64,000 bases of DNA, from contig CP001771.1 in the NCBI GenBank assembly GCA_000024525.1, positions 62,001 to 126,000 of the forward strand, given 5' to 3'. Below, piece after piece: positions 1,272 to 32,663 of this stretch. The DNA is from Spirosoma linguale DSM 74 (GTDB lineage: Bacteria; Bacteroidota; Bacteroidia; Cytophagales; Spirosomataceae). Position 1 is the stretch's first letter, and the number at the start of each line of letters is the position of its first letter. Under the pieces are notes generated by a model, which was not told the origin of the DNA, searched no databases, and saw only the letters and a list, made by a program, of their open reading frames with translations. The translations under genes and the position numbers were made by a program.

Positions 1272-4097
1272 ATGAAAAACACCTTTCTTAGGACAGTAAG
1301 CCTGCTGATATTGCTACAAACAGTCAGTTATGGGCAACACCAGCAGCATACGATGGCCGCTGGCGATCAGGCAGCCAAGCCACCGGCTAATCCCGACAAA
1401 TCAAACTTTCCGGTCGTTAAAACATCCCTGCCCGTCTCCCGGCCCCAAGCCCTTGCCCGCGTGAAACCAACGGGTAAGCGGGTCGAGTATGACCTCACCA
1501 TTGACGAGCAGACGGTCAATATTACGGGCAAGCCGAAGAAGGCCATGACCATCGATGGGGGCATTCCTGGCCCGACGATGCGGTTTACCGAAGGCGATGT
1601 GGCCGTTATTCGGGTACATAACAAATTAAAAACCGAAACCTCATTGCACTGGCACGGACTGCTGGTGCCCAACATTCAGGACGGTGTGTCATACCTGGAA
1701 ACCCCACCCATTCTGGCGGGCACAACTCGCACATTTGAATACCCGCTGGTTCAGTCCGGCACCTACTGGTTCCATTCGCACACCCGCTACCAGGAACAGG
1801 TCGGGGTGTATGGTTCTATAGCCATTCAACCTCAGCAGCTCACCCACAAGGTGGATCATGATCTGGTGTTGTTGCTGTCGGATTGGACGAACGAGAATCC
1901 GGCGTATATTCTGAAAAACCTAAAACGGCGCAACGAGTGGTACTCCATCAAAAAAAATAATGTCCAATCGCTCAACCGCATTATTCAGCACAAGGCGGTA
2001 GGGGCGTACCTACGGCAGTCGATGATGAAGATGGCCCCGATGGATATATCGGATGTATACTACGACCGATTCTTGGTAAATGGGAAAGACACCGTGCGTT
2101 ACCCGGAAATCAAGGCTGGTCAAACAGTCCGATTGCGGGTCATCAACGCCAGTGCGTCCACCTATTTTCACGTCAATTATGCCGGCGGTCCCATGAAACT
2201 GATTTCCGCCGATGGGCTGGACGTGCAGCCGGTAGACGTTGACCGGCGGCTGATTGCCATTGCCGAGACCTACGACTTTATTGTCACGGTACCAAAAGGG
2301 GGAGCTTTTGAAGTGCGGGCCACCGCTCAGGATGGGTCTGGCTACGCAACGGCCTTGCTCGGAAATGGCCCGGCGAAGTACGCTCCGACGATTCCCCGTC
2401 CTGACCTCTACAAATTAACAGCCAACATGAGCCAAATGGGAGGCATGGGCATGGGGACGATGAACATGGGCAAAACCGATACGACCGCCCAGGCGAATGT
2501 GGACATGAACGGCCCCATGATGCACGATAGGCCCGGCATGGATTCCAAACCCGGCAAAGCCGAGTCCGCTATGGGTCAAATGGATCATAGCCAAATGGAT
2601 ATGGGACAGGGTAAACAGGCAAAACCGGCCCCCGCTACGCCCAAAAAGCCCGATTCGATGACCGGCATGGATCATAGTGGCATGGCCGGGATGGACCACA
2701 GCCAGATGGATATGGGTGCGAAGCCCTCAGCCAAGAAGTCGGCTTCGGCAAAAAAAGCCACCAAGCCAGCAAAAGCGGCTGGCTCAATGGAGGGCATGAA
2801 CCACAGCGGTATGAAGATGGATATGGCCGGGATGAACATGCGCAAAGATGGCAAAATGGACATGACGGGGATGGACCACGGGCAGATGAATCAATCATCC
2901 ATGCCGGGTATGGATCATAGTAAAATGTCCATGAAAATGGATTCAATGCCCGCTAGGAAAACAGACGGCAAAAAGCCAGATTCGATGGCTGGCATGGATC
3001 ACAGCCAGATGAATATGGGTAGCAAAGCCGGTACTATGGCCGGGATGAAGGGAAAGGATCATGGAGGAATGGCCGGTATGAGCATGATGGACGAGCAGAA
3101 TACCATCGACTACAGCATTCTCAAGTCGCCCGAACCCATTGTGTTTCCCACTAACCGCCCGATTCGGGAAATCCCGCTGACGCTGACGGGGAATATGTTC
3201 CGCTACATCTGGGGCTTCAACGGGCAACCCCTGTCACGGGCCGATATGATTCAGATTCGGCGGGGCGAGATTGTGCGTATCCGCATGATGAATAACACGA
3301 TGATGATGCACCCTATTCACCTGCACGGGCACTACTTCCGGGTGTTGAACGGGCAGGGGCAGTATTCACCCCTGAAGCATACGGTGAACGTATCGCCCAT
3401 GGAGAGCGTCACGATTGAGTTTATGGCCGATGACGAGAAAGACTGGTTTTTTCACTGCCACCTGCTCTATCATATGCTCAGTGGCATGGCCCGCGTGGTC
3501 AGCTATGGCGACAAACCAGACTCGTCCATTGCCAACATCCAGAAACAGCACACACGCGATATGCGTGACAACCAGCCGTTTATTTGGGGTTATCTGCAAC
3601 CCGGCTATCCAATTAACTACTTTAACCTGAACATTTCTAACAACAAAAACGCCATCGTTGCGGGTGGAGATCATGACTGGCGCACGAACCGCTTCGAGTT
3701 CGACTTAGACTATGAACGCTACCTCGGCGATTGGTTCCGCGTGTTTGCCGGGATTGACGGCGGTAATGAAGAGTTTCTGCGCCGGGTACGGCCCGAAGAT
3801 GGGGTAGCCACCGACCGGCGCATCGTTCGAGCCGTGGCGGGTATTCGGTATATGCTGCCGTTTCTCATTCAATCGGAAGTAAAACTCGACACGCGCGGTA
3901 ACGTCCGGTTCCAGCTTAATGGACAGCAAATGTTGTTTCCCCGCTTAGATTTTCAGTATCAGACGCAGTGGTTAGTGGGCAGTTACCTGCGGGCGCACGT
4001 GGAACTGCAATACACCGTTACCAAAAATCTGTTTCTTCATACGGATTACGACACCCGGTACAAAGCCTTTGGTGGCGGACTGGGGTATAATTTCTGA
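1272..4097 (+). CDS. CopA-like multicopper oxidase with Met/His-rich insert and barrel-like C-terminus
   Basis: A 941-residue exported copper resistance oxidase, well above the roughly 600 residues usual for PcoA/CopA. A signal peptide covers residues 1-21. Cupredoxin copper motifs are all present: HWHGLL near 126, WFHSHT near 167, HPIHLHGH near 680 and HCHLLYHMLSGM near 728. It should oxidise Cu(I) in the periplasm, with trinuclear and type 1 sites intact. Between about 385 and 625 lies a low-complexity stretch with repeats of the type GMDHSQMDMG, probably a Cu(I) store. After the oxidase domain, residues 760-941 alternate polar and aromatic residues and end in GGGLGYNF, like an outer-membrane barrel strand; this part resembles the PcoB/CopB job and may be a fusion. 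Confidence 0.88.
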   Translation: MKNTFLRTVSLLILLQTVSYGQHQQHTMAAGDQAAKPPANPDKSNFPVVKTSLPVSRPQALARVKPTGKRVEYDLTIDEQTVNITGKPKKAMTIDGGIPGPTMRFTEGDVAVIRVHNKLKTETSLHWHGLLVPNIQDGVSYLETPPILAGTTRTFEYPLVQSGTYWFHSHTRYQEQVGVYGSIAIQPQQLTHKVDHDLVLLLSDWTNENPAYILKNLKRRNEWYSIKKNNVQSLNRIIQHKAVGAYLRQSMMKMAPMDISDVYYDRFLVNGKDTVRYPEIKAGQTVRLRVINASASTYFHVNYAGGPMKLISADGLDVQPVDVDRRLIAIAETYDFIVTVPKGGAFEVRATAQDGSGYATALLGNGPAKYAPTIPRPDLYKLTANMSQMGGMGMGTMNMGKTDTTAQANVDMNGPMMHDRPGMDSKPGKAESAMGQMDHSQMDMGQGKQAKPAPATPKKPDSMTGMDHSGMAGMDHSQMDMGAKPSAKKSASAKKATKPAKAAGSMEGMNHSGMKMDMAGMNMRKDGKMDMTGMDHGQMNQSSMPGMDHSKMSMKMDSMPARKTDGKKPDSMAGMDHSQMNMGSKAGTMAGMKGKDHGGMAGMSMMDEQNTIDYSILKSPEPIVFPTNRPIREIPLTLTGNMFRYIWGFNGQPLSRADMIQIRRGEIVRIRMMNNTMMMHPIHLHGHYFRVLNGQGQYSPLKHTVNVSPMESVTIEFMADDEKDWFFHCHLLYHMLSGMARVVSYGDKPDSSIANIQKQHTRDMRDNQPFIWGYLQPGYPINYFNLNISNNKNAIVAGGDHDWRTNRFEFDLDYERYLGDWFRVFAGIDGGNEEFLRRVRPEDGVATDRRIVRAVAGIRYMLPFLIQSEVKLDTRGNVRFQLNGQQMLFPRLDFQYQTQWLVGSYLRAHVELQYTVTKNLFLHTDYDTRYKAFGGGLGYNF

Positions 4098-5322: not shown

Positions 5323-6120
5323 TTAGTGATGCTTATAAAAACCTACGCCCTTAATATCGTTCCAAGCGGTGGTCTGGTGGCATTTGTAGCATTGCGTGAC
5401 GTCAACCCCTCCGCAGCACCCTTCGACTTGCCCGCTGCTTCCCCCAGCCACTACCGTTTTATCAACCATCTCGAAGTGCATCATATAGTGACTTGGCGGG
5501 GCCTGATGGCAACTGACGCACTCCGTTGAGCGGGGGGAGGGGTGCTGAAACGCTGAAATTGTCCATTCCGTAGCGGCATGGCATGACGCGCAATCCGGCC
5601 CGAACAGGCCGAAGTGGGGGTCTTTGGTGCTGTGGCAACCGGCGCAGTTCAGATCAGCTTCGAGGGCCGATAGCAACGGGTGACCGGCAGGCAACATCGC
5701 TTTGCCGGACGAATTGGGCGTTTTCCGCGCACTTGCAAACAACTTGTTGCCAATGCGGGCCAGTGCTTTATGATCCATCACGCGCAGGTTGGCATCCACG
5801 CCCAGATGCTCCACGTGGCAGGACGCACAGTTGCCAATCGTGGCATGAAACGCAGTGGGCTGTCGCTGGAGCAGGGCTTTGTTGTCGGCGTGGCAACTGA
5901 TACACTTCGCTTCATCAATGCCCATCACCGGCGTGTGGCAGGCGGCACAGTTAGTGGCAAATTGCGCGTGAGCCACCGAGAGGTGGCCTGGACTCACCTG
6001 GCTCTGCCAGTTAACGGCGATGGACTTGTCGGCGGGCAGCCAGAGCGCGTAGAAGACGGCTACCGCGAACACCAGCCCGGCCAGCAGCAACAGCCCGGTT
6101 TGCCTTTTTAATTGAACCAT
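5323..6120 (-). CDS. Seven-haem c-type cytochrome
   Basis: A 265-residue protein with an N-terminal membrane anchor (about residues 9-28) and seven CxxCH haem sites at 58, 73, 98, 159, 177, 201 and 244. Many extra His residues (for example HFEM, HHSP-like and the final YKHH) could be distal haem ligands. The sites come in loose pairs like class III and NrfH/MtrA-type cytochromes. It should carry electrons in the periplasm. The start ATG lies 13 bases inside the upstream membrane gene, which indicates translational coupling. A CC pair at 235-236 near the last haem is unusual and could be a metal or disulfide site. The physiological electron acceptor is unknown. Confidence 0.85.
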   Translation of the reverse strand: MVQLKRQTGLLLLAGLVFAVAVFYALWLPADKSIAVNWQSQVSPGHLSVAHAQFATNCAACHTPVMGIDEAKCISCHADNKALLQRQPTAFHATIGNCASCHVEHLGVDANLRVMDHKALARIGNKLFASARKTPNSSGKAMLPAGHPLLSALEADLNCAGCHSTKDPHFGLFGPDCASCHAATEWTISAFQHPSPRSTECVSCHQAPPSHYMMHFEMVDKTVVAGGSSGQVEGCCGGVDVTQCYKCHQTTAWNDIKGVGFYKHH

Positions 6121-6874: not shown

Positions 6875-8935
6875 TTAGGCTTCTACTGATACAGGTGCGG
6901 TTGCTTTGGCCTGACACGCCAGAATAATCTGTTGCGCCTTGTCCTCGTCGGTCAGCGCGTCCTGAACCGCCATCGTCACGTTACCCGACAATAGCTTGAC
7001 TTTGCAGATTCCGCACGTCCCGACGCGGCACGAATAATCAATATTTACCCCAATATCTTCCGACGCTTCCAGTACCGTTTTATCGGGTGTCAGCAGGGCC
7101 GTTTTGTTCGATTTGGCAAAGGTGATAACCGCCGTATTGGCTGGTGTTTCAGGTACAGCAGGTTGTCCGTTTTCAGTCACCGCAGCTTCTCCTACTTCGG
7201 ATGCAGCCGGTTGTTCTGCTTCTTTACCATCTGGCGGTTTTACAGGTCCATCGGTTGCTAGTGACGGAGTCTTGGCAACAGGTGGCGAACCTGCAAATAC
7301 CTCCTGCATAATATTTTCTTTCGGCACTTTCAGTTCTTCCAACATTAGAATTACTGCATCCATCATGACCTTTGGTCCACAGATGTGAACCATGCGGGAT
7401 ACAATACCCGGCACCCGTTCAGCCAATAGTTCTTTGGTGATATGACCGGAGATAAAATCAACACTGGCCACGCCTTGCTGTCGGCTGAGTACAAAAAATA
7501 CGTGCAAATTGGAGTACCGCTTTTGCAGGTATAGTAGTTCTTCCCGGAAAATAATGTTGCCCTCATCTTTGCAGGAGAAGAAAAAATAAATTTCCCCTTT
7601 CCAGGAGCGGTCGGTTAAATAGCGGATGGCACTCATCATGGGCGTTAAACCGACACCACCCCCAATGAACACCGCACTTTTGGCATGTGTTTCGGTAAAT
7701 GTAAATTTGCCCGACGGCCCGGTGACTTGCAGCAACTCGCCTGTGTGAACCTCCGTATTCAGATACCGCGACACGGTGCCAAACTCTTCCTGTTTGACGG
7801 TAATTTCGCAGTAATCCCGGTGCGTCGGCGAGGAAGCAATGGTATAGGACCGTTTGAGGGGAATGCCGTTTGGCGTTACCGCTACCGTGATAAACTGCCC
7901 CGGCAGGTAGTTGAACGGCAGTTTGCCTCCCCCCGGATCGGTCAGTCGGAAGGTCTTGACGTTTGGGGTTTCCTGAAAAATTTCGGACACTATCAACGTT
8001 CCCGAAAACGAATTTGGTTTCGACGGCGTAGTATCGGGACTAATTGCCGCGTCCGGTTTGGCAAAGGGCGTAGGAGACGTAGGCGCGGGGCTGATCGCAG
8101 CAACCGGTTCGGGTTTGGGTGCCGGTGCTAAACCGCCCGATGGTAGCGCAGGAGCTATCGAACCGTCGGGCTTGGCACCGCCCGAAGGTGGTATCGTCTC
8201 GTCAGACTTTCCGCCCAGTTTTTCGACGAGCGCATTGGCACGTTTCATTTTCTGAAAATACATCCAGATCATCGTGGTGGCAAACATAATTAGCGTCAGC
8301 ATCGTAATGATGTGAAACCACGATAGGTCCCCAATCCCCGGTGGCTCATCGTCCTGGCCAGTGGGTGTGAGCCTCATTTCACGGTTAAACCATTGCAAGG
8401 CCAACGTGCGCGGGTCTTCGTTTTCGGCTAAGGCTCGTTGCGCGGAAAACCCGCTTTCGAGCAGCCGCTGGCCCTGCCGGATTTCTTCGGTAGCGGCCCG
8501 TTTCACGTCCAAATCCTGATTTCTGGATTGTACGGCATCCGATAGTTTTCGCAGGCCCGAAGCCATCAGCGCGTTCCCCTCGCTGATCCAGGCATCCGAT
8601 GCCTGTCTGATGGCATCGCGTTTTTCGGGAACCAGTTCCGGCATCTGCATCAGGGTTGGATAGAGTGCCATAGGGGCAACCTTGCCCATCTCTTTCATCA
8701 TCTCGCCCATTTCGGCCATAATGCCCCCTTTAGCACCACCCGCTATAACGCCCTTGGCTCCACCCGAATCCGTCGCTGTTGTCCCGGACGACATGGCCGT
8801 TTCTGTACCGGACATCGGCGCGGCTGAGGCCTGCGGATGATGCTGTTCATGCTCGCTTTGAGCGTTGGTAACCGATGTCCCTCCAAGTAATAGGGCGGGC
8901 AGCAACATGAAAATTGCAATGCGAAGAGACCTCAT
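6875..8935 (-). CDS. Membrane-bound FAD/NAD(P)H reductase fused to a 2Fe-2S ferredoxin
   Basis: A 686-residue fusion. Order: signal peptide (1-26), a Met-rich and helical N-terminal part, one membrane helix (about 208-228), a long Pro/Ala-rich linker (245-310), an FAD-binding domain with RSYTIASS (about 364), an NAD(P)-binding domain with GGGVGLTPMMSAI (about 425) and ICGPKVMM, a second linker, and a plant-type ferredoxin domain with CRVGTCGICK and a last Cys in LACQAKA. This is the FNR-like oxidoreductase architecture that passes electrons from NAD(P)H through flavin to an iron-sulfur cluster. With one membrane helix between a signal peptide and the linker, the redox part should face the cytoplasm. 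The next two genes would take the electrons to the periplasm. Confidence 0.85.
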   Translation of the reverse strand: MRSLRIAIFMLLPALLLGGTSVTNAQSEHEQHHPQASAAPMSGTETAMSSGTTATDSGGAKGVIAGGAKGGIMAEMGEMMKEMGKVAPMALYPTLMQMPELVPEKRDAIRQASDAWISEGNALMASGLRKLSDAVQSRNQDLDVKRAATEEIRQGQRLLESGFSAQRALAENEDPRTLALQWFNREMRLTPTGQDDEPPGIGDLSWFHIITMLTLIMFATTMIWMYFQKMKRANALVEKLGGKSDETIPPSGGAKPDGSIAPALPSGGLAPAPKPEPVAAISPAPTSPTPFAKPDAAISPDTTPSKPNSFSGTLIVSEIFQETPNVKTFRLTDPGGGKLPFNYLPGQFITVAVTPNGIPLKRSYTIASSPTHRDYCEITVKQEEFGTVSRYLNTEVHTGELLQVTGPSGKFTFTETHAKSAVFIGGGVGLTPMMSAIRYLTDRSWKGEIYFFFSCKDEGNIIFREELLYLQKRYSNLHVFFVLSRQQGVASVDFISGHITKELLAERVPGIVSRMVHICGPKVMMDAVILMLEELKVPKENIMQEVFAGSPPVAKTPSLATDGPVKPPDGKEAEQPAASEVGEAAVTENGQPAVPETPANTAVITFAKSNKTALLTPDKTVLEASEDIGVNIDYSCRVGTCGICKVKLLSGNVTMAVQDALTDEDKAQQIILACQAKATAPVSVEA

Positions 8936-9642: not shown

Positions 9643-10299
9643 TCACATATCGTCGTCCATCATCGGAGCCTTTTTCATGGGAACCTTCTTCATCGGGGCT
9701 TTTTTCATATTACCTCCACAGCATTTTTCGGTCATATCCATGCCTTTTTTCATCATGCCCATGCCCTTGTCCATCATATCCATGGCCATACCTGCTGTCG
9801 AGTCTGCGCTCATCGAAGTCATGCCCTTGCTGGTCATGGCTTTGCCCATGGTCATCATGTCCATGCCCTTATTTATCTTGGCACGGTCCGACCGGTTCGC
9901 CATCGCGGGTTCAGTCATCTTGTGGGTGTGCATGGCACCTTTTCCTTTTTTCATCATCTCTTTTCCCATATCCATCATTTCCATACCCTTATCCATCATT
10001 TTCATTCCCCTGTCCATCATGGATTTGTCTTTGGCGATTTGACCCTTATCCATCATGGATTTGCCGGAATTCACCATGTCTATGCCGTGATGAATCATCA
10101 CCATCCCATCTTCGTTACTGGCCGACTGGGCCGTCATGGGAGCAACTGTATCGGCAGGCGGAATAACATTGGCGTTGGGTTGGTAAACCATCTTCATACC
10201 CCCGTGATTACTGCCCATGCCCTTTTGCTTTGCCAATGGTTGACCAGCCACTGTCAGGGAAATTCCCAGACAACACACCACTATGAGTTTATTGTACAT
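9643..10299 (-). CDS. Secreted Met-rich repeat protein
   Basis: A 218-residue exported protein with signal peptide MYNKLIVVCCLGISLTVAGQ. The repeats (DRGMKMMDKGMEMMDMGKEM, NKGMDMMTMGKAM, MDKGMGMMKKGMDM) match those of the lipoprotein encoded downstream, and it ends with a Lys/Pro/Met tail (KKAPMKKVPMKKAPM). A CC pair (TEKCCGGN) sits near the end of the repeats. Probably a soluble periplasmic Cu(I) binder; this is inferred from composition and location. Its leader DNA holds a perfect inverted repeat (10356-10393). Confidence 0.72.
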   Translation of the reverse strand: MYNKLIVVCCLGISLTVAGQPLAKQKGMGSNHGGMKMVYQPNANVIPPADTVAPMTAQSASNEDGMVMIHHGIDMVNSGKSMMDKGQIAKDKSMMDRGMKMMDKGMEMMDMGKEMMKKGKGAMHTHKMTEPAMANRSDRAKINKGMDMMTMGKAMTSKGMTSMSADSTAGMAMDMMDKGMGMMKKGMDMTEKCCGGNMKKAPMKKVPMKKAPMMDDDM

Positions 10300-10885: not shown

Positions 10886-13800
10886 CTAAAGTTGCCGGTA
10901 TTTTCCGGGTCGGTCCGGGTCTGTTACAAACCACCCAGGATTACCCTGCTGGTCCCGGCCCAGTCTGGCTCCCGGTATAGGTGGGTTATCGGCACGGTTA
11001 TACACTTTTGTCAAATCAGGTGTCAGCAGCCCCTTCGATTGTATAAATTGAGCTTTCACTAATTCTTGGAAACAATCGTGGAATGCAAAGACGATCTGTT
11101 GGCTATCCTCATCGGTATGGGCCTCGGTTATAAAGCAAGGAAAACCATCCCAGATGTGAATCCCTTTTTCCCTCATCATCGTGAACAGGAGATCGCCGTA
11201 GGGGACATCTTCGGTGAATTTCAGTTTCCAGAGTGATCCAAACTGAGCGATCAGCATGGGTAGTTGTTGTTTGATAAAGGCTATATTCAGCGTGTCAGCC
11301 AATTGTTTTGCTTTGGCGGTCAAACGCTCCTGAAGCGCGGGACCTTGCTCCCGCAGGTATTGAAGCGAGGCATGGGTGGCTGCCAGGGCTAAAGGGTGAC
11401 GCACAAACGTACCGGCAAAAAACGTGATGTCGGCCTGCGGATACGAGTCGTCACCATACTGCCAGTATCCGCCATCCAGGGCATCCATAAACGCGGCCTT
11501 TCCCGCTACCACCCCAATGGGCAGGCCACCCCCGATTACTTTGCCATACGTTGCCAGATCCGCTTTAACGCCAAACAGAGCCTGCGCTCCGCCCGGATGC
11601 ATCCGAAAGCCGGTTATCACTTCGTCGAAGACTAAAGCCGTTCCCGAAGCTTCGGTAATAGCCCGCACCTGTTTTAGAAAATCAACGGGCTGAAATTCGG
11701 GACGTCGGCTCTGCACAGGTTCAACCAGCACAGCGGCCAGTTCCGAGGCTCTTTCCCGAAGGATTTGCAGACTTTCATCGGTGCCATAGTCCAGAATCAA
11801 CACGTTCTGGACCGCTTCTGCAGGAATACCCAGGGCCGCCGGATACGATTGGCGACTGGTACTACCCCGGCTGATTACTTCATCGAAAATGCCGTGATAC
11901 GAGCCAGCAAAGGTAACCACCAGCGAACGCCCCGTTACGGTGCGGGCCATGCGTAGCGCACCCAGCACAGCCTCTGAACCCGTGTTGCATAAGGCTGCCC
12001 GGTCGAAGCCAGTGAACTCGCAAACCATCCGGGTTACCTGGCCGGCCAATTTATGCTGCGGCCCCAGTTCATAGCCCCGTTCGATCTGATCATGCAGAAT
12101 CGTTTTTAGCCAGTCAGGCTGATAACCAAACAGAGTTGATCCAAACCCATTTAGCACATCAATATATTCGTTACCGTCGATATCCCATAAACGACTTCCC
12201 TTCGACCGCTCTACCACAATTGGATAGACCAATTCCTTTGTCAGCGGCTTGAACCCCGTTACGGCGCGGGGATCGGCCATCCATCGCCGGTTCTCCTGCG
12301 CGTAGGCTTTGCTGGCGGCTGTTTTCTCGGTGTAGCGTTGGGTAAGTTTTGCCAAAAATAGTTGCTGCACCTCGCTGAGAGATGTTACCTGTCGTTCGAT
12401 GCGCGCTCCGGCTCCGAACGCCTGTCGGATTGCAGGAGCCTCGGCTACCGATGGTAATGCTTTTTCGGGTGTCGGGGTAGCCAAAGGCAACGGGTTGGTC
12501 ACTTCCCCTACTGACTGCAATGCTAGGGCAGGTGCCGGGCTAATTTTCCCGATGGGTTGCTGACGCACAGCTGATGGCTGATGACCTCGCAAAACGGCTA
12601 GTTGTTCCGCCATAATCTGTAGTTGTCGCTCAAACAGGTCTGTGACCGGGTCAGCGGGGCCAATCGGAAGGGCTGGCCGATTCGGTAGCGGTTTTGCTTC
12701 GTTCGACAGCGTAGGCTGCGGTGCAGTTGGCTTCGGAACGGAGAGCGTTGGTGGAGTAACCAGGGCCGGGGGCTGAAATGCATTGATGGGTAGTTCCCGA
12801 TCTATAAAATCAACTAAGGCTTCGATGGAATTGTACGCACTGTTCAACTGTCGAAACGAAATTGGCAGGTCGAATTTCTTGCGAAGGTTATAGGAAAACT
12901 GAGTCAGCGCTAAGGAATCAAGCCCCAATTCTAAAAAGTTCAGGGGCAGAGCCTTCTCATCCATCTGGATGCCTGCCGTGTCGTTCAGCAATTGCCGAAC
13001 CTGGTTTATCAACTCATTTCTACGCATGATCGGTATAGCGATGGAATCTTCAACGGGAACTGGGATATTCTGTAGCTCCAGGGGGATATTGGTCGGGCTC
13101 TCGGATGATTGCCGGGGCGGGTCCACCCAACAGCGAGTCCGGTCGAAGGCATACGTGGGTAAGGTTATTTTCCGGTTGGGTTGGCCTGTCTGAAAAGACG
13201 ACCAGTTTGGGTCGATGCCTTTAACCCAGAGTTGCCCTAAGGCATTCAGGATAGATTCATAATCTGTTCGATTACCTTGCCCATTCCTTTCCAAACTTGT
13301 CACGATCTCAATCGGGCGGGGTATCGCCTGTTGGCGGGCCAAAGTCGACGTTACACTGCCGGGGCCGACCTCCAGCATAATAGGGTTCGGCAATGTAAAC
13401 AGCGTTTCCAACGCATCGGCAAAACAAACCGTAGCTCGCATATGGTTGGCCCAATAGCCGGGATTTGTGGCTTCGGCGTCGGTCAGCCAGGTACCACTCA
13501 CCGTTGATACAATTGGCTTTTGGGGGCGTTGCAACGCTATACCTCGCACCCTGTTTTCAAATTCGCCCACAATCGGGTCCAGCATGGCTGAATGGAAGGC
13601 ATGGCTGGTTTCTAGAAGCCGGTTGGCAATGCCCCTCTCGTTTAACTGTCCGGCAAATAGGGTAATCGAGTCGTTGGGCCCGGCCACCACGCACAACTGA
13701 CGACTGTTGACTGCTGCCAGCGATAGAGCGGGGGGCAGCATGGCTGAAACGGATTCGACATCGAGCCGTACCGATAGCATACTTCCTCCTGGCAGTTCGC

Positions 13801-16800
13801 TGATCAGTCGGCCACGGGCTGCGATAAGGGCCAGTACGTCTGACAGGGTGAAAACCCCGGCCAGATGAGCCGCAACGAACTCGCCAATGCTATGTCCGCA
13901 AAAGACAGTGGGTTCGATTCCCCAGCTTTGCCAAAGCCGGGCCAGGGCGTATTCGGTTACAAACAACGCGGGCTGGGTGTAGCGCGTGTTTTTCAGCCGG
14001 TTGGTCGCGTCAACATCGATGGTATCGGGGTAGAGAACCTGGCGAATGTCGAGGCCGAGATGAGTCATCAGTTCGTCGGCACAGGTGTCAATGGCCTGCC
14101 GATACACCGATTCGTTTTCGTATAGTTCCCGGCCCATGTTGAGGTACTGCGCCCCCTGACCCGGAAACAGCATGACGAAGGAACCCACCTCAGTGGAGCC
14201 GGGTGGTTGTGATGCCGCATTTCCGTCTGAAAGGGGGTTAATCGTTTTCGGAGCCGCCGGAGCCAGTAACGCCTGCATGAGTTCGGGCTGGCTACGAGCC
14301 AGTACGAATCGACGGTGAGCAAAAATGGGCTGGCGGTTCTGAAGCGTATAGGCTACATCGGCAAGCGTCTGTTCGGGGTGCTGGCCAAGATGCCCGGCCA
14401 GATGAGCCGCATAGGTTGTCAGACTTTGCCGGGATTTGGCCGACCAAACCGCCAGATGGACCGGTCGCTGGGCGGCTGATGGGCTTACTGCCTCGACGGA
14501 CCCGGCGGGAATATACTCTTCCAGCACGACATGAACGTTGGTACCGCCAACGCCAAACGAACTGACTCCCGCCCGACGCGGCCCCGATGCGACCCAATCG
14601 CGGTGCGTATCGTTCACGTAAAAAGGGGTATCGGCAAAATCAATAACCGGATTTGGTGCGCTGAAACCAAGCGATGCGGGCAGTTGCTGGTGGTAGAGGG
14701 CCAGCGTGGTTTTAAGCAGCCCCGCCACGCCGGCAGCCGCTGTCAGATGCCCCAGGTTGCTTTTAATGGAACCCAGCGCGCAAAACTGTTTTTTCGACAC
14801 GCCACCGAACGCCATGGTTAGCCCCTCCACTTCGATAGGATCGCCCAACGGGGTGGCTGTGCCGTGGGCCTCCACATAGCTTATCGTGGACGGATCAATT
14901 TGGGCATCAGCAAGGGCCATCCGAATGGCCCCGGCCTGCCCTTCGGCGTTGGGAGCCGTAAAACTGCCCTTACCGCTCCCGTCGTTGTTAACGCCCACCC
15001 CTTTAATGATCCCGTAAATGGTATCGCCATCGCGTTCGGCGGCTGATCGGGCCTTTAGCAACACCACCCCCGCGCCATCACTGAACACGGTTCCGGTAGC
15101 ACTGGCATCGAACGGCCGGCAATGTCCATCCCGACTCAGCATGGCCCCTTCTTCGTACAGATGCCCACTATAAATGGGTGCCGTAACGCTGGCTCCGCCC
15201 GCCAGTGCCAACGCACAATGGCCCAGCCGAATGCTATCGACCGCCTGGGCAACCGCCAGCAGCGAGGTAGAACAGGCCGAATAAACACTAACGGCTGGCC
15301 CGCCCAGATTTAGTTGATAAGCCGTTCGGGAGGCAATAAAGTCCTTTTCGTTGACCGTCATGGCCTGAAAATTCCCCACCTGGCGAACGACTTCAGTGTT
15401 GGGCAGTACATTGTTGAGGTAGTACGTATTGTTGCCACAACCCGCCCAAACCCCGATGCTTCCCCCGTACTGATTCGGCAAATAACCCGCCTGTTCGAGA
15501 GCTTCCCAGGCAATCTCCAGAAAAACGCGCTGTTGCGGGTCCATGACCTCGGCCAGTTTCGGGCTTAGGCCAAAAAAGCCCGCATCAAATTGGTAAGCCT
15601 CGGCCAGAATCCCCCTGGCGTTCACGTACTGTGGGTCCCGGATTAAGTCGTCGGGCAATGAAGGATCTAACTCGTCGGGCGTAAAAAAGCGAATCGTTTC
15701 CTGACCTGCTCGTAATACTTCCCACAGGGCCTCAACTGTGTTGGCTCCCGGAAAACGACCGGCCATACCAATAATCGCCACCTCGTCGGTATCTGTACGT
15801 GCCGTATTTTTTCGACCAGGAAGGGATAAATCCTGGACTTGCCCGTCCACAAAATCGGCCAGGGCCCGTACCGTAGGATACTGATAGAGCTTCGTAATAG
15901 GTATCTCTAAAGAATGGGTTTGCTTCAGGGCCGCTATGGTGCGGGCCGCCAACAGAGAGTTGCCGCCTAACTCAAAAAAATTATCGGTGACACCCATCCG
16001 GTTGAGTGCCAGCACCTCTCGCCAAACAGCCAGCAACTTTTCCTCGGTGGAATTGCCCGGCATCAGGAATGTGTTTACCAACGAGTCTGCCGGTTCAGGA
16101 TCAGGTAACGCCCGCCGGTCAACCTTGCCGTTTGGGGTCAGCGGAACTTGGTCAATGGACATCCACACTGCGGGCACCATATAATCCGGCAGGCGGCTAT
16201 TCAGAAAATGGATGAGGGTCGATTTCTCGAAGGGGCCATCCATAACAACATAGCCCACTAACCGAATATCGGCATCACCGTAGATTTTAGCGACGACAAC
16301 GGCCTGTTTTACGCCGTGATATTGCTGAAGGGTTTGCTCAATTTCGCCCAACTCAATGCGGAATCCCCGAATCTTAACCTGCGCGTCAATACGGCCCAGG
16401 TACTCCAGTTCGCCCTGCGGTAACCGCCGCACCAAATCGCCACTGCGGTAAAGCCGGTGGGATACGGGTTGGGTTAGGTCGTCGGTCTGATCCGACAACG
16501 GGTTTGGAATAAATCGCTGCGCGGTTAGTTCCGGCTGGTTCAGATAACCCCTCGCCAGTCCCGCGCCACCCACGTATAGCTCACCCGTTTCGCCAACGGC
16601 TACCGGTCGTTGCTGTTCGTCCAGGACGTGCGTAGTCAGCGTTGGAATGGACCGACCAATCAGACTACTCGATTGGGCAAGATGTTCTCCCCGGAGGGCC
16701 AGGTAGGTTACGTGTACGGTGGTTTCGGTAATGCCGTACATATTGACGAGCTGACAAGTTGGGAATGCCTCTTGCCAGGGGCGAAGTTTTCCCGGATGCA

Positions 16801-17707
16801 GGGCCTCACCACCAAAAATGACGTATCGAACCGATAACGGAACCGACCGCCCCACAATATGCTCCTGCAATACATAAAACGCGGACGGTGTTTGATTAAG
16901 CACCGTGACGCGGTGCGTAGCAAGCAACGCGCCATACAGGTGAGCGTCTTTGGCGATGTGCTTAGGCACGATAATAAGCCGCCCCCCAAACAGCAACGCG
17001 CCGTACATTTCCCAGACGGAGAAATCGAAACAGAACGAGTGAAACATCGTCCAGACATCCCGTTCGCTGAAATCAAAAAGCGACGCGTTCATCTTCATCA
17101 GACTGACTACATTGGCGTGTTCGATCATTACGCCCTTTGGTCTGCCCGTCGATCCTGATGTGTAGATGATATAGGCTAACTGGGGGGGTGTCGGTGGCTC
17201 TGATACAGCTTCAATGAATTCACTGTTAATGACCGATGCATCCCGATCAAGGCACACGAGGGTTCGAGTAACCGGTTGCTTCAATCTTTCGGTCGGATGG
17301 GCTGGTTCGGCTTCCAGTTTGGGGCGGGCAACACCATCGGTAACAACTACCGTTGCGTTCAAATCAGCAAGGATATACTCGATTCGGTCAGCCGGATAAT
17401 CCGGGTCAATGGGTACGTAAGCTCCCCCCGCTTTAAGAATTCCCAATAGCCCAACAATCATGGCGATGGAACGGTCCAGGCAAATAGGAACCAGGGTTTC
17501 CGGCTTTACGCCCTGTTTGCGGAGGTAGTGCGCCAACTGGTTCGATTGCTGGTCCAGTTCAGCGTAGGTTAGCAGGCTGTCAGCACACACGACGGCCACT
17601 TGATCGGGTGTCTGGCGGGCCTGATCCACAAATAGGTCAACTAATGTTTTGTCCGTTGGGTACAGCGGTTCGGCCAGATTCGGTGAGGCTTGAGTCGGTT
17701 TGTTCAT
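10886..17707 (-). CDS. Hybrid NRPS-PKS-aminotransferase (A-T-KS-AT-ACP-AMT)
   Basis: One 2,273-residue megasynthase. Start taken at ATG 17707; a TTG two codons upstream is also possible. Approximate domains: adenylation 15-530 (YTSGSTGRPKGVM, YRSGDL, NGKVDRRALP), carrier 545-620 (ELGGNSLLAA), ketosynthase 643-1065 with Cys in SACSTSL and two His in EAHGTA and SNLGHL, malonyl-type acyltransferase 1178-1480 (GHSIGE, HAFHS), carrier near 1596 (LELGLDSLAL), Pro-rich linker 1635-1780, and a class III PLP aminotransferase 1785-2230 with Lys in TYGKVIGGG. The A-domain pocket aligned by eye to PheA reads D-F-W-N-I-G-M-V-H, the published threonine code. There is no condensation, ketoreductase or thioesterase domain. 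Expected steps: load Thr, extend with malonate, aminate the beta-ketone. Release mode is unclear. Confidence 0.92.
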   Translation of the reverse strand: MNKPTQASPNLAEPLYPTDKTLVDLFVDQARQTPDQVAVVCADSLLTYAELDQQSNQLAHYLRKQGVKPETLVPICLDRSIAMIVGLLGILKAGGAYVPIDPDYPADRIEYILADLNATVVVTDGVARPKLEAEPAHPTERLKQPVTRTLVCLDRDASVINSEFIEAVSEPPTPPQLAYIIYTSGSTGRPKGVMIEHANVVSLMKMNASLFDFSERDVWTMFHSFCFDFSVWEMYGALLFGGRLIIVPKHIAKDAHLYGALLATHRVTVLNQTPSAFYVLQEHIVGRSVPLSVRYVIFGGEALHPGKLRPWQEAFPTCQLVNMYGITETTVHVTYLALRGEHLAQSSSLIGRSIPTLTTHVLDEQQRPVAVGETGELYVGGAGLARGYLNQPELTAQRFIPNPLSDQTDDLTQPVSHRLYRSGDLVRRLPQGELEYLGRIDAQVKIRGFRIELGEIEQTLQQYHGVKQAVVVAKIYGDADIRLVGYVVMDGPFEKSTLIHFLNSRLPDYMVPAVWMSIDQVPLTPNGKVDRRALPDPEPADSLVNTFLMPGNSTEEKLLAVWREVLALNRMGVTDNFFELGGNSLLAARTIAALKQTHSLEIPITKLYQYPTVRALADFVDGQVQDLSLPGRKNTARTDTDEVAIIGMAGRFPGANTVEALWEVLRAGQETIRFFTPDELDPSLPDDLIRDPQYVNARGILAEAYQFDAGFFGLSPKLAEVMDPQQRVFLEIAWEALEQAGYLPNQYGGSIGVWAGCGNNTYYLNNVLPNTEVVRQVGNFQAMTVNEKDFIASRTAYQLNLGGPAVSVYSACSTSLLAVAQAVDSIRLGHCALALAGGASVTAPIYSGHLYEEGAMLSRDGHCRPFDASATGTVFSDGAGVVLLKARSAAERDGDTIYGIIKGVGVNNDGSGKGSFTAPNAEGQAGAIRMALADAQIDPSTISYVEAHGTATPLGDPIEVEGLTMAFGGVSKKQFCALGSIKSNLGHLTAAAGVAGLLKTTLALYHQQLPASLGFSAPNPVIDFADTPFYVNDTHRDWVASGPRRAGVSSFGVGGTNVHVVLEEYIPAGSVEAVSPSAAQRPVHLAVWSAKSRQSLTTYAAHLAGHLGQHPEQTLADVAYTLQNRQPIFAHRRFVLARSQPELMQALLAPAAPKTINPLSDGNAASQPPGSTEVGSFVMLFPGQGAQYLNMGRELYENESVYRQAIDTCADELMTHLGLDIRQVLYPDTIDVDATNRLKNTRYTQPALFVTEYALARLWQSWGIEPTVFCGHSIGEFVAAHLAGVFTLSDVLALIAARGRLISELPGGSMLSVRLDVESVSAMLPPALSLAAVNSRQLCVVAGPNDSITLFAGQLNERGIANRLLETSHAFHSAMLDPIVGEFENRVRGIALQRPQKPIVSTVSGTWLTDAEATNPGYWANHMRATVCFADALETLFTLPNPIMLEVGPGSVTSTLARQQAIPRPIEIVTSLERNGQGNRTDYESILNALGQLWVKGIDPNWSSFQTGQPNRKITLPTYAFDRTRCWVDPPRQSSESPTNIPLELQNIPVPVEDSIAIPIMRRNELINQVRQLLNDTAGIQMDEKALPLNFLELGLDSLALTQFSYNLRKKFDLPISFRQLNSAYNSIEALVDFIDRELPINAFQPPALVTPPTLSVPKPTAPQPTLSNEAKPLPNRPALPIGPADPVTDLFERQLQIMAEQLAVLRGHQPSAVRQQPIGKISPAPALALQSVGEVTNPLPLATPTPEKALPSVAEAPAIRQAFGAGARIERQVTSLSEVQQLFLAKLTQRYTEKTAASKAYAQENRRWMADPRAVTGFKPLTKELVYPIVVERSKGSRLWDIDGNEYIDVLNGFGSTLFGYQPDWLKTILHDQIERGYELGPQHKLAGQVTRMVCEFTGFDRAALCNTGSEAVLGALRMARTVTGRSLVVTFAGSYHGIFDEVISRGSTSRQSYPAALGIPAEAVQNVLILDYGTDESLQILRERASELAAVLVEPVQSRRPEFQPVDFLKQVRAITEASGTALVFDEVITGFRMHPGGAQALFGVKADLATYGKVIGGGLPIGVVAGKAAFMDALDGGYWQYGDDSYPQADITFFAGTFVRHPLALAATHASLQYLREQGPALQERLTAKAKQLADTLNIAFIKQQLPMLIAQFGSLWKLKFTEDVPYGDLLFTMMREKGIHIWDGFPCFITEAHTDEDSQQIVFAFHDCFQELVKAQFIQSKGLLTPDLTKVYNRADNPPIPGARLGRDQQGNPGWFVTDPDRPGKYRQL

Positions 17708-17713: not shown

Positions 17714-18259
17714 TTAGAGAAGTTCATTCCTATCAGCCAGCCAATCGCTCGACAGGTACGCATAGAGGACGGTATCCATCAACACATTATTTTTAACGAC
17801 ACTGTCCCGGAGTAACCCTTCTCGACGAAAGCCGACCTTTTCAAGTACCTTGATCGAGGCTGCATTGTGCGCCATTGGCTGCGCGTAAAGCCGGGTAAGC
17901 ATAAACTCTGTGAACGCATAGTCGATCATTGCCTTTATGGCTGCCGACACAATCCCGCGCCCCCAGTACGCCTGCCCAAGCCAGTACCATAATTCGGCTG
18001 AATACCGGCTAATGTCTTCTCCAATTCGTAATCCAATGTTGCCTATTGCTTCGCCACCCACGTCAATAGCGAAGTTGGTTTCCAGTTCAGGGTCAACGAC
18101 GTATTGTATCCACCGCTGGGCATCAAGTTGTGTATATGGGTGAGGGAAGCTATCGCGGAGATTAAGCCAAATAGCTTTATTGTTGGCGTGCTGAGGCAGG
18201 TGATCTTCATCGCCGTATTGCCACGAGCGGATCAGACAGGTGCCACAATCAATCTTCAT
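17714..18259 (-). CDS. GNAT family N-acetyltransferase (RimJ/RimL-like)
   Basis: Translation from ATG 18259 (MKIDCGTCLIRSW) gives 181 residues, the family's usual size; an upstream ATG adds only 14 unlikely residues. Seen: the acetyl-CoA loop region GQAYWGRGIVSAAIKAM and the RLYAQPMAHNAASIKVLEKVGFRREG motif typical of RimJ/RimL-type enzymes. It would move an acetyl group from acetyl-CoA to an amine. The stop codon is 4-7 bases from the NRPS-PKS start, so both are surely co-transcribed. The acceptor may be an amino group of that enzyme's product, which is inference; self-protection by acetylation is another option. Confidence 0.85.
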   Translation of the reverse strand: MKIDCGTCLIRSWQYGDEDHLPQHANNKAIWLNLRDSFPHPYTQLDAQRWIQYVVDPELETNFAIDVGGEAIGNIGLRIGEDISRYSAELWYWLGQAYWGRGIVSAAIKAMIDYAFTEFMLTRLYAQPMAHNAASIKVLEKVGFRREGLLRDSVVKNNVLMDTVLYAYLSSDWLADRNELL

Positions 18260-18411: not shown

Positions 18412-18456
18412 GAGCGACAGGAGCGTAACCTACAAAAGGTTACACTCCTGTCGCTC
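18412..18456. terminator. Terminator hairpin downstream of the DUF305 gene
   Basis: A 19-base stem (GAGCGACAGGAGCGTAACC with one mismatch) around a seven-base loop, with T-runs on both strands. It lies just after the minus-strand DUF305 stop at 18479 and before the GNAT-NRPS pair, so it separates the two transcripts. Confidence 0.82.
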
Positions 18457-18478: not shown

Positions 18479-19063
18479 TTACCGGGAGACAATCTGAGCT
18501 TCCATTTTTTTTAGTTCGGCGACCTCTTTTGTCTGATTCTGAATGACTTTCCGAGCCATCATTTTCATCTTCTCCGTTTTGCCCTCCTTCAAAAAAGCGT
18601 TGGCCATGTCGATGCCCTGCTGATGGTGCTGCGCCATCATACTGGCATAATCGTGGTCCATGTTCCCGTTCATCGAGTGCTTCCCACTGTGCATAATCTT
18701 CATGGCATCCTGGCCCAGTTTTGAGGAAGCCGTTTGGGGCTTGTGGCTGCTGATGAACTGCGTCAGCTCCTTAATTTCTGCTTGATTAGCCGTTTTGATT
18801 TTACCTGCTAAGGCTTTTACCTGTGCATTTTTGCCCTGCCTGATTTCCATCTCCGACATATCAACTGCCGATTGGTGGTGCATTTTAAGCATCATGGCAA
18901 AATCATGGTCGGGGTCGCCGGTCATCTTCATGCTCATCATCTGATTCATGCCGGATTGCATGGCCTTCATCATCCCGTTGCTGGCCGACTGCTGGGCCAA
19001 TGCTGGTTGAGAAAGCAGCAGAACCGCACTGAGTGAGACCACGGTGAACAGTTCGTTTTTCAT
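18479..19063 (-). CDS. Secreted protein with two DUF305 repeats
   Basis: A 194-residue exported protein (signal peptide MKNELFTVVSLSAVLLLSQPALAQ). Two copies of the DUF305 signature are visible: DPDHDFAMMLKMHHQSAVDM and MDHDYASMMAQHHQQGIDMA. Each has the D-x-D/HH pattern of the ferritin-like fold in which His, Met and Asp could bind metal. A highly Met-rich N-terminal segment (NGMMKAMQSGMNQMMSMKM) adds further possible Cu(I) ligands. Biochemical function of the family is not established. It is paired with another DUF305 gene upstream. Confidence 0.85.
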   Translation of the reverse strand: MKNELFTVVSLSAVLLLSQPALAQQSASNGMMKAMQSGMNQMMSMKMTGDPDHDFAMMLKMHHQSAVDMSEMEIRQGKNAQVKALAGKIKTANQAEIKELTQFISSHKPQTASSKLGQDAMKIMHSGKHSMNGNMDHDYASMMAQHHQQGIDMANAFLKEGKTEKMKMMARKVIQNQTKEVAELKKMEAQIVSR

Positions 19064-19149: not shown

Positions 19150-19863
19150 TTATTTGAGTTCTGCGTTCGGTATGCCATGTTTATTAGCAAACGCAGCTAA
19201 TTCCTTGAGGGCACTGGCCTGCTCCGTAATGATAATACTGGCCTCATCGGTCGGCGCTTTATCATCGCCGTACTTAAATTGAAGCGTGGCCATTGCAATA
19301 GCCCCCTTGTGATGCTCAATCAACCGGCGCACAAAATCAACGTCCACATCGGCGGTGTTCGGAACCTTTGCATAGGCCTGAATCATCTGCTTCATGGCTG
19401 TTTTCATCTCCTTTTTGAACTGCTTATAAACGTTGGCATCTATCTTTTCGGGCGCGGGATGTCCGTTCAAAAACGATTGCAGACGTGTCTGGCTTTCCTT
19501 GTCGCCCTTAATGGCCATATCGGCCATTTTCTTCGCTTCAGCGTGTTTGCCATACTGATTTTCAGCGGTTCCCAGATCAATGCTTCCCTGGTGGTGCATC
19601 TTCATCATCATGGCGAAGTCCATGTCCGGGTCACCCGTCATTTCCATGTTTTCCATATCGCGCATCATCTGCCCCAGTACCCGGTCCGATTCCCGGTCAA
19701 ATGCCTGGTCGTTGGGATCATCTGATGAGGTCCGCGCACTGGCTTCCGTCAGGATTTCGGGTTCAACGGCTTCACTACCGTTCTTGTCGCACCCCGTCAG
19801 GGTAAGGGTCATAGCCAAGGCTAGCCCGGTCAGGTTGGTTGCTGATAAAAAGTTCTTTTTCAT
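19150..19863 (-). CDS. DUF305 lipoprotein
   Basis: A 237-residue protein with lipoprotein signal (LTLTGC, Cys 25). It has two DUF305 repeats, shown by DPDMDFAMMMKMHHQGSIDL and VDVDFVRRLIEHHKGAIAMA. The first is the more Met-rich and closely matches the first repeat of the next gene, suggesting duplication. Likely anchored in the periplasm or at the cell surface, with a possible metal-binding role inferred from the copper context. Confidence 0.85.
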   Translation of the reverse strand: MKKNFLSATNLTGLALAMTLTLTGCDKNGSEAVEPEILTEASARTSSDDPNDQAFDRESDRVLGQMMRDMENMEMTGDPDMDFAMMMKMHHQGSIDLGTAENQYGKHAEAKKMADMAIKGDKESQTRLQSFLNGHPAPEKIDANVYKQFKKEMKTAMKQMIQAYAKVPNTADVDVDFVRRLIEHHKGAIAMATLQFKYGDDKAPTDEASIIITEQASALKELAAFANKHGIPNAELK

Positions 19864-28753: not shown

Positions 28754-29098
28754 ATGAAGGTGCAAAAATCCTTGGAGAAGCCGACGCGGATTCTGGGGAT
28801 GCGGATGCAGGAACTGGGGCTGTACGTCTGTCTGCTTATCGGGCTGATTACGTTGGCTTCGCTGGCACGGACTATCGTCCCGGTTCCCCGCGCCGTGTAT
28901 GCGGTCATTCTCATTCTGCTGGTGCTGTCGTGGCTGGTTCTTCGGTGGGGTGAACGACATAAGCATCCCTCCTTTCTGATTTCAATGATTTCCTGGGCCT
29001 GGCTTCAACCAAAGCGGGTCAATCACGTAACCATCAAATTTCGTGGCAAAGACGGTCAACTACGACGCAATATTTCCCGTCTTCAGCATCGAAGATAA
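28754..29098 (+). CDS. traF: Conjugative transfer protein, DUF4133 (TraF-like)
   Basis: A 114-residue protein with two membrane helices (about 24-40 and 47-64) and a basic C-terminus. Size, topology and position between DUF4134 and the VirB4 ATPase identify it as DUF4133/TraF, the VirB3-like component that works with VirB4 at the inner membrane. Its last 56 bases overlap the TraG frame. Confidence 0.82.
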   Translation: MKVQKSLEKPTRILGMRMQELGLYVCLLIGLITLASLARTIVPVPRAVYAVILILLVLSWLVLRWGERHKHPSFLISMISWAWLQPKRVNHVTIKFRGKDGQLRRNISRLQHRR

Positions 29099-31499: not shown

Positions 31500-31511
31500 A
31501 CCTCATCCTCT

Positions 31512-32660
31512 ATGAACGAAACCTCGTTTGGCTATCTGATGGCCAACAATGGCGACCTGATCCGTACCAAAGTTCTGGGGCTGGCGGCTGCGCTCATGCT
31601 CATCAATTTCCTTTGGGCATTAGGCCGAACGTTTCTGGTATCGTCCGATTTGACCACCGATTATACGCCAGTCATTCGGGCCATCATCCTGACTATTGTA
31701 CTAACCCTGTACAGCGATCTTCTGTCTATTGCCACCGGCATGATTGATTACGTGGCCAGCCTGTTTTCTCCCAAAGATCCACAGGAAGTATTGGCTTCGC
31801 TCAAGGCGATGACCGCCAAAGTGGACGGTGCTTTTACAACGGCTAATTCCAACCTCTGGAAAGATTTCGACCTGAAGTGGGACACCGATCAGATGAAGAA
31901 AGACATCGACATCGTATTGGGCGTGATGAGCAATTCGATGGAAATGGTCATTCTGAAATTAGTGCGGTTAGTCGCTGAGGGACTGACGCTGCTGGTGCGG
32001 GCATTCGTGGCTAAGATGCAGGTATTGGTCGTCGTCTTTCTGGCGATCACCGGCCCAATTGCCATTCTGATCTCTATGATTCCCGGCTTTCAGGGGGCAA
32101 TGGCCTATTGGTTCCGCAATCTGCTACACGCCAAATTCTGGGCGATGACCATCGGCGTACTCGATAATATCGTCAATTTCTACGTGGACAATCTCGTGGA
32201 CTCGCACATCGACAACATGATGAACAATGCCACGCTCGAACAGCGATTCGGGGCCATCTTCAATCTGGTTGTCGTGCATTACTGCGTCATGGGAGCCTAT
32301 TTAGCCACACCCTTTCTAACCAATACGTTTATCGGGGGCATCACTTCGGCGGGTGGTCTGGCAGGCTGGGCAGCTAACAAAGGAGCCAATCTGCCGGGCG
32401 AAGCTATGCGGACGGGCCAGGCTATGAGCCGGAACAGTTCGAGCAGCAACCGTTCACGTTCTGGTAACTCGACTAATAATACCAGTAAAGCCAGTACTGA
32501 AAAAACGGCTAAGAACACATCGCGGGCCGAACGGGAAGAAAGCTACGAAGCACGTGTCGGCCGTCAGGCGGAACCGGAGCCAAGCTACAATGCCCCGGCC
32601 CTAAATGAAGGTCAACGGAGGGCCGATGATGACCGCTACGATGACTATTCTTTTGTATAA
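31512..32660 (+). CDS. traJ: TraJ, VirB6-like membrane channel protein
   Basis: A 382-residue protein with about seven membrane segments and a charged, Ser-rich C-terminal tail (SRNSSSSNRSRSGNSTNNTS). The central part (FLAITGPIAILISMIPGFQG, then AMAYWFRNLLHAKFW) is the conserved TraJ/TrbL-type core. It forms part of the inner-membrane channel. It starts 12 bases after traG, as in CTnDOT-type operons. Confidence 0.85.
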   Translation: MNETSFGYLMANNGDLIRTKVLGLAAALMLINFLWALGRTFLVSSDLTTDYTPVIRAIILTIVLTLYSDLLSIATGMIDYVASLFSPKDPQEVLASLKAMTAKVDGAFTTANSNLWKDFDLKWDTDQMKKDIDIVLGVMSNSMEMVILKLVRLVAEGLTLLVRAFVAKMQVLVVVFLAITGPIAILISMIPGFQGAMAYWFRNLLHAKFWAMTIGVLDNIVNFYVDNLVDSHIDNMMNNATLEQRFGAIFNLVVVHYCVMGAYLATPFLTNTFIGGITSAGGLAGWAANKGANLPGEAMRTGQAMSRNSSSSNRSRSGNSTNNTSKASTEKTAKNTSRAEREESYEARVGRQAEPEPSYNAPALNEGQRRADDDRYDDYSFV

Positions 32661-32663
32661 ACC

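What the first reader, a model, noticed from the sequence alone, without database searches (positions are those of the whole stretch)
10886..17707. Compact threonine-specific A-T-KS-AT-ACP-AMT megasynthase with a predicted vicinal-diamine product
All catalytic residues are visible for each domain, and the A-domain pocket read by eye (D-F-W-N-I-G-M-V-H) equals the known threonine code. The AT has the malonyl-type HAFH motif. With no ketoreductase, condensation or thioesterase domain, the logical product is Thr extended by one malonate and aminated: a 3,4-diamino-5-hydroxyhexanoyl thioester. The final domain being an aminotransferase with no release domain is unusual. Inference: release by lactam or lactone formation or by an unlinked enzyme.
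Basis: partly seen in the sequence, partly recalled or inferred. Interest (0 to 1): 0.82.

Follow-up and report, generated by a model that had tools for sequence, protein, structure and literature searches.

The report
Two-gene threonine diamine synthase unit
A single giant enzyme that appears to turn the amino acid threonine into a small molecule with two neighbouring amino groups has, in one branch of Spirosoma-like bacteria, no downstream partner enzyme beside it but an acetyltransferase gene instead, which points to a very small pathway with an unknown but testable product.

Summary
One minus-strand ORF (ATG 17707 to stop 10886, 2273 aa) is A-T-KS-AT-ACP-AMT, with the catalytic residues, pocket DFWNIGMVH-K (Thr, recalled) and AT motif HAFH. 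Ending in AMT is common in this family: relatives put a condensation (C) domain after AMT, in the same ORF or the next gene or two (72 of 74 ORFs). The window belongs to a Spirosomataceae clade in which 0 of 10 distinct loci has a C domain downstream, and its own genome has none. A RimJ/RimL-like GNAT gene lies directly upstream in all 10. It co-diverges with the synthase (r 0.94) and differs from paralogs at fixed sites. The AMT carries D2093/F2096, seen in 38 aligned rows (28 distinct) and in 0 of 164 others. Most likely Thr, malonyl and an amine give 3,4-diamino-5-hydroxyhexanoyl-ACP, released by closure on its own 4-amine to a gamma-lactam and N-acetylated by the GNAT. All of this chemistry is inferred. 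The copper genes nearby are probably neighbours only: a terminator-like hairpin lies between.

The parts
10886..17707 (-). A-T-KS-AT-ACP-AMT synthase, 2273 aa from ATG (TTG two codons earlier also in frame)
16124..17629 (-). Adenylation domain, pocket DFWNIGMVHK (Thr code, recalled)
15848..16042 (-). Thiolation (PCP) domain, Ser584
14663..15787 (-). Ketosynthase, Cys812/His948/His987
13244..14170 (-). Acyltransferase, GHSIG and HAFH (malonyl type, recalled rule)
12758..12997 (-). ACP, Ser1598 (limits approximate)
   Evidence: (second PP-binding stretch, position not printed)
11153..12226 (-). PLP aminotransferase, class III, Lys2056; related to mycosubtilin AMT
11420..11431 (-). AMT residues D2093-I-T-F2096, the D private to this clade
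10889..10984 (-). Conserved C-terminal tail PPxPGARLGRDxxGNPxWF..PGKY; kept here though no C protein follows
17714..18259 (-). GNAT acetyltransferase (181 aa from the ATG shared by homologues; ORF opens at 18301); stop codon ends 6 bases before the synthase ATG
18412..18456 (-). 20-pair terminator-like hairpin upstream of the GNAT gene, between it and the copper genes

Best explanation
A two-gene unit (GNAT plus synthase) makes one small threonine-derived molecule. (1) The A domain activates Thr and loads it on T. (2) KS condenses it with malonyl from AT/ACP to give 4-amino-5-hydroxy-3-oxohexanoyl-ACP. (3) AMT converts the 3-ketone to an amine, giving 3,4-diamino-5-hydroxyhexanoyl-ACP. (4) With no C or TE, the 4-amine attacks the thioester in a favoured 5-membered closure, releasing 4-amino-5-(1-hydroxyethyl)pyrrolidin-2-one, or hydrolysis by a housekeeping thioesterase gives the free diamino acid. 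(5) The GNAT N-acetylates the free amine, as self-protection or as the last tailoring step. The unit most simply arose once, among synthases that hand over to a C-bearing protein, by losing that partner, changing the AMT loop and gaining the GNAT; the Thr code was probably inherited. Shown by sequence: domains, residues, linkage, clade, absence of the partner. Inferred: direction of change, all of the chemistry, the release and the GNAT substrate.
For: Domains and residues. No Condensation domain in the own 8.49 Mb genome, rated 100% complete (3 of 3 candidates scored). A C domain follows AMT in 72 of 74 non-clade synthase ORFs and 0 of 10 distinct clade loci. No C or TE trace at E <= 1 beside nine other clade loci, and only noise (E 0.17-0.8) in the window. 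GNAT next to the synthase in 10 of 10 distinct clade loci and no GNAT homologue at E <= 1e-5 in the other 76 loci. GNAT-adjacent synthases form one clade (21 rows, SH-aLRT 100, quick tree); linked GNATs form one clade (100/99). Mantel r 0.938, 0 of 9999 permutations as high; dN/dS 0.19 for both genes, window against L165. GNAT N74, R78, G80 and W91 in 16 of 16 linked and 0 of 24 paralogs. AMT D2093/F2096 in 38 rows (28 distinct) and 0 of 164 others. GNAT model pLDDT 95 with near folds that include SpeG, RimJ/RimL and MccE. A PPTase with 4PPT_N and ACPS domains is in the genome. 4-aminobutanoyl thioesters close readily to a 5-ring (PMC4737276, abstract and passages). A GNAT gives self-resistance to a cationic polyketide-peptide (PMC9054821, abstract and passages).
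Against: No product is known. C-paired relatives carry the same free 4-amine yet presumably pass their chain on, so cyclisation need not be fast. The C-terminal tail is still conserved, as if docking to something. Two genomes hold a GNAT of the clade without a synthase beside it (L175, L176), so the GNAT can do without it. One near-identical plasmid copy has its synthase split into three ORFs (L174). The Thr code is not special to the clade: 24 of 164 other rows have it, among them the close relatives P0021-P0024. The own genome has four weak thioesterase-family matches, so a hydrolase cannot be excluded. The GNAT P-loop has Ala where the usual Q/R sits (sequence reading; motif as quoted in PMC9054821).
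Confidence: 0.45

Rival explanations
1. The GNAT works on the assembly line itself, either acetylating the amine as a protecting group before or during chain growth, or acting as the release enzyme that moves the chain from ACP to an acceptor.
For: Close upstream linkage and co-divergence; private residues on strands 70-79 and 87-94 of the model or next to them; protecting-group logic is proposed for butirosin, vicenistatin and desertomycin (PMC4737276 passages).
Against: C-paired relatives have the same free amine and no such GNAT. GNATs without a synthase keep all eight private residues checked, which suits an enzyme acting on a free molecule. Nearest folds are ordinary acetyltransferases.
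Confidence: 0.15
3. Release happens before amination: the 4-amine closes on the beta-keto thioester and gives a tetramic acid, AMT acting little or on the free ring.
For: Same 5-ring geometry; for chalkophomycin the authors suggest that release and pyrrolinone amide formation after a PKS step without TE may be non-enzymatic (PMC11085572 passages).
Against: The AMT catalytic residues are kept in all 38 clade rows, and the domain carries the clade-private change, so it is probably in use. For althiomycin the same paper reports proposals of enzymes that help release.
Confidence: 0.1
4. The product is a copper ligand (a vicinal diamine binds Cu(II), recalled) and the unit belongs to the copper-resistance genes around it.
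For: Multicopper oxidase 1272-4097 and DUF305/CopM genes 621-1148, 18479-19063 and 19150-19863; related gene sets in L165, L168, L174, L175 and partly L176; a DUF326 gene in L166.
Against: A 20-pair terminator-like hairpin lies between the unit and the copper genes. L167, L169, L170, L171, L172 and L173 share none of the island's gene clusters, though only some of their neighbours were profiled. The contig carries transfer genes, so co-residence may be cargo.
Confidence: 0.08

Closest known systems
C-paired A-T-KS-AT-ACP-AMT synthases of Bacteroidota and others (e.g. L182, L184, L010)
   Same: Same domain order, mostly about 41-59% identity to the window, same catalytic residues; the tail is kept in the unfused ones sampled
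   Different: A C domain follows (C-A-T-TE or C-A-MT-T-TE where profiled), A codes vary, AMT mostly G..Y, and no GNAT beside them
Mycosubtilin synthase MycA aminotransferase domain
   Same: AMT homologous over its length (6kfm, E 2.2e-133); in MycA it aminates an ACP-bound beta-ketothioester with Gln as donor (PMC3870968 passages)
   Different: In MycA the domain sits between PKS and NRPS modules of a lipopeptide line; here the chain should be Thr-derived and no NRPS module follows
Chalkophomycin-type hybrid NRPS-PKS end
   Same: A two-carbon PKS extension after an amino acid, no TE, ring-forming release that may be non-enzymatic (PMC11085572 passages)
   Different: A longer peptide, a methoxypyrrolinone ring and an R0 domain; no AMT named in the passages seen
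GNAT self-resistance enzymes PamZ, ZmaR, MccE
   Same: GNAT gene beside biosynthetic genes (PamZ) and acetylation of an amine (PMC9054821 passages); MccE fold match
   Different: PamZ is a tandem GNAT; the substrate here is unknown; identity to MccE is about 21%

Membership tests
Hybrid NRPS-PKS with integrated AMT (MycA-like beta-amination) | KS, AT, ACP and class III AMT in one protein with intact residues | tested here: met
Hybrid NRPS-PKS with integrated AMT (MycA-like beta-amination) | Condensation module follows AMT, in cis or in a following gene | tested here: not met
Hybrid NRPS-PKS with integrated AMT (MycA-like beta-amination) | AMT aminates the ACP-bound beta-ketone | not testable with these tools
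   needs enzyme assay
Thr-activating NRPS A domain | Pocket code DFWNIGMVHK | tested here: met
   code recalled, mapping by core motifs
Thr-activating NRPS A domain | Thr-dependent ATP-PPi exchange | not testable with these tools
   needs enzyme assay
RimJ/RimL-like GNAT | Acetyltransf_3 family and GNAT fold | tested here: met
   NCBIfam matches to RimJ-type models are below their cut-offs
GNAT self-resistance pair | Synthase loci have the GNAT; some genomes keep the GNAT alone | tested here: inconclusive
   10 of 10 distinct loci have it; only two GNAT-alone contigs, both short (8201 and 9332 bases) and from genomes 80-84% complete
GNAT self-resistance pair | Acetylation inactivates the product | not testable with these tools
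   product unknown
Copper metallophore (chalkophore) pathway | Copper genes constantly linked and co-transcribed | tested here: not met
   terminator-like hairpin between; six of ten clade loci share none of the island's gene clusters

The most novel reading that the evidence does not exclude
An assembly line that lost its condensation/thioesterase half became a complete two-gene pathway to a new vicinal-diamine molecule: the aminotransferase loop was retuned, the chain's own amine replaced the release domain, and a GNAT related to the resident chromosomal ones was captured and reshaped to act on the product. It moves as a cassette between plasmid and chromosomal sites.
Probability: 0.35. Interest if true: 0.7.

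Novelty: new variant of a known kind. Interest (0 to 1): 0.55.

Why it matters
It would be a very small hybrid NRPS-PKS pathway (two genes, one extension, no C or TE domain), a direct test of whether intramolecular amine attack can serve as the normal release step, and a source of chiral 3,4-diamino building blocks. The related synthases that still have a C partner give a natural before-and-after comparison of how an assembly line shrinks.

Tried and rejected
Considered and rejected: (a) the ORF as a fragment of a larger synthetase cut by the window or a mutation: no C/TE trace in the window beyond noise or beside the other clade loci, and clade proteins end alike, at the tail or within some 25 residues after it (P0019 has a different end). 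(b) G191 holding an orphan C gene: fetching the region showed an ordinary C-paired synthase in front (L179). One search had missed it because only 2 candidates per genome were scored, so copy counts are lower bounds. (c) The tail as proof of an AMT-C linker: it is present in unfused proteins (63 of 98 by a strict pattern) and absent from 19 of 21 proteins over 2600 aa, one of the other two having it at its very end, so a docking or end element fits better. (d) A gain of the Thr code with partner loss: close relatives outside the clade have it too. (e) Copper function: see rivals.

Led nowhere: paper searches for vicinal diamine + aminotransferase domain + PKS + threonine (0 papers), Bacteroidetes + hybrid NRPS-PKS + aminotransferase + threonine, butirosin + glutamyl + lactam + acyl carrier protein, Spirosoma + polyketide + nonribosomal peptide + cluster (4 papers, listing only). 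Searches listed 10 of 36 and 10 of 61 papers, 8 of 107. I saw no description of this synthase in these listings; most subscription journals are not held.

Weak points: terminator-like and promoter-like hits in the region are no more than in shuffles overall (12 against 10.0, 5 against 6.3), and the 20-pair hairpin stands out only by its length. Contig-length pairing of synthases and GNATs (10 of the 23 synthase rows that I picked) is only supportive: P0190 pairs with P0015 but lies with chromosomal paralogs in the GNAT tree. In the synthase tree 30 of 56 rows were in no group, most with unknown neighbourhood. The counts (Thr 33 of 33 against 19 of 137) left out P0021-P0024, P0033, four duplicate rows and rows of low identity, so I use the full recount: Thr code in 37 of 38 D/F rows (the 38th lacks those residues) against 24 of 164 others. 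Three of the 80 loci (L057, L070, L073) had no ORF reaching the AMT end and were not judged.

Full report
Observation. The catalytic residues are in place; 193 of 202 aligned rows match all nine single sites, and seven of the other nine only lack the T site in that ORF. The pocket is DFWNIGMVHK. I mapped it by core motifs; that it means threonine is recalled. The AT has GHSIG and HAFH, the malonyl type by recalled rules. AMT is homologous to the mycosubtilin synthase AMT, whose domain moves an amine from Gln to an ACP-bound beta-ketothioester (PMC3870968, passages).

The family. This is not a lone oddity. In most relatives the protein also ends after AMT, or runs on into a C domain. In 72 of 74 non-clade synthase ORFs a C domain follows AMT, in the same ORF or in a gene starting within 1.4 kb. 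Two of the 72 (L047, L054) were missed by the script and recovered from the C positions. The remaining two are a tandem copy followed by a second synthase that itself has a C gene after it (L061) and one at a contig end (L064). In the Spirosomataceae examples profiled, the partner is C-A-T-TE or C-A-MT-T-TE.

The clade. The window and nine other distinct loci (L165-L173; L001, L002, L003 and L020 are second copies of L166, L167, L168 and L173) form one clade with 11 ungrouped database proteins, SH-aLRT 100, set among C-paired synthases (quick tree). None of the ten has a C domain within 5 kb downstream on its strand, and tblastn of C and TE pieces finds nothing at E <= 1 in the fetched stretches and only noise in the window. 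The window's own genome, 8.49 Mb in 9 contigs and rated 100% complete, has no Condensation match; 11 other genomes carrying the GNAT clade do have C domains. So in this genome the chain cannot go to a recognisable C domain. The window's KS is the only megasynthase KS found there: 6 matches, the other five in open frames of 400-427 aa.

The GNAT. Directly upstream, its stop ending 6 bases before the synthase ATG, lies a GNAT gene of the RimJ/RimL-like Acetyltransf_3 family, 181 aa from the ATG shared with homologues. It flanks the synthase in 10 of 10 distinct clade loci. Among the 80 loci a homologue at E <= 1e-5 occurs only in L001, L002, L003 and L020. In the family survey of 222 genomes every near-full-length synthase row of 63% identity or more lies beside such a GNAT, as does the two-piece row of G191. 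The AMT-only fragment of G171 (64%) has no such neighbour listed. The near-identical copy in G202 has the GNAT and a synthase split into three ORFs (L174). Distances of the two genes correlate (Mantel r 0.938, 0 of 9999) and dN/dS between window and L165 is 0.19 for each. The linked GNATs form a clade (100/99) apart from chromosomal paralogs, one of which sits at 58% identity in the own genome. Two GNATs of the clade (L175, L176) have no synthase beside them yet keep all eight private residues checked. A clade synthase without a GNAT was not seen, the GNAT without a synthase was. Self-protection genes behave this way, but n is 2, both contigs are short and both genomes incomplete.

Changes in the synthase. 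D2093 and F2096 of AMT occur in 38 rows (28 distinct at 99.5% identity): all 21 of the tree clade and 17 more of high identity. Of the 164 other rows none has D; most have G/Y, and the exceptions are G/F (4), A/F (3), E/Y (1) and one gap row. These residues lie a few positions before the AGT motif; that this is near the PLP phosphate is recalled. The Thr code is in 37 of the 38 (the other row lacks those residues) and in 24 of the 164 others, including close relatives, so it was probably inherited rather than gained. The C-terminal tail is kept.

Mechanism. Steps 1-3 follow from domain chemistry: Thr loading, one malonyl extension, amination, giving 3,4-diamino-5-hydroxyhexanoyl-ACP. Step 4 is inferred: with no acceptor, the 4-amine can close a 5-ring. 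Published work treats 4-aminobutanoyl thioesters as prone to such closure and argues that protecting groups evolved against it (PMC4737276, abstract and passages). Step 5 is inferred: the GNAT acetylates the product. PamZ and ZmaR do this for other products (PMC9054821, passages), and the predicted GNAT (pLDDT 95) resembles SpeG, RimJ/RimL, MccE and many others, which does not fix the substrate.

Context. The contig is 146,936 bases with TraG and TraM genes, so probably a conjugative plasmid. Copper genes flank the unit, but a 20-pair terminator-like hairpin stands between. Six of ten clade loci share none of the island's gene clusters; neighbours profiled there include a sulfite reductase, DnaJ/GrpE and an integrase. 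I therefore rate a copper role as weak.

Verdict. Confirmed anatomy, known enzyme kind, new variant: a C-free, TE-free, GNAT-linked clade with a predicted vicinal-diamine product. With only two genes it should be simple to test.

Noticed in passing
L182:1976-6447, L180:3518-9173 and 13707-15143: A C-paired synthase (L182) and a lone C-A-T-TE gene (L180) of Spirosomataceae sit in exopolysaccharide-type gene sets (GT2, outer-membrane OEP, GNVR-domain Wzc-like protein; in L180 also a sugar transferase and a flippase); a link between NRPS-PKS and polysaccharide export.
   Followed up: partly
L180:9445-13590; L181:9243-13400: C-A-T-TE genes standing without a KS-AT-AMT synthase in the fetched stretch (G111, G197).
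   Followed up: partly
window 1-24000: Copper/redox island: multicopper oxidase 1272-4097, multihaem cytochrome-like 5323-6120, FAD/NAD/2Fe-2S reductase 6875-8935, Met-rich protein 9643-10299, CopM/DUF305 genes.
   Followed up: partly
window 58787-60637: Cytochrome oxidase subunit I gene on the probable plasmid, a respiratory gene as cargo.
   Followed up: no
window 29043-42233: Conjugation genes TraG (29043-31499) and TraM (34355-35692) and a Tn3-type transposase (39150-42233).
   Followed up: no
L174:6006-13374: GNAT identical in protein to the window's, but the synthase is split into three ORFs.
   Followed up: no
L061:5981-27913: Parapedobacter soli has two A-T-KS-AT-ACP-AMT synthases in tandem between C-containing genes.
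   Followed up: no
L025: Record titled Bordetella parapertussis MAG carries a synthase 47% identical to this mostly Bacteroidota family; the title may be a misassignment.
   Followed up: no
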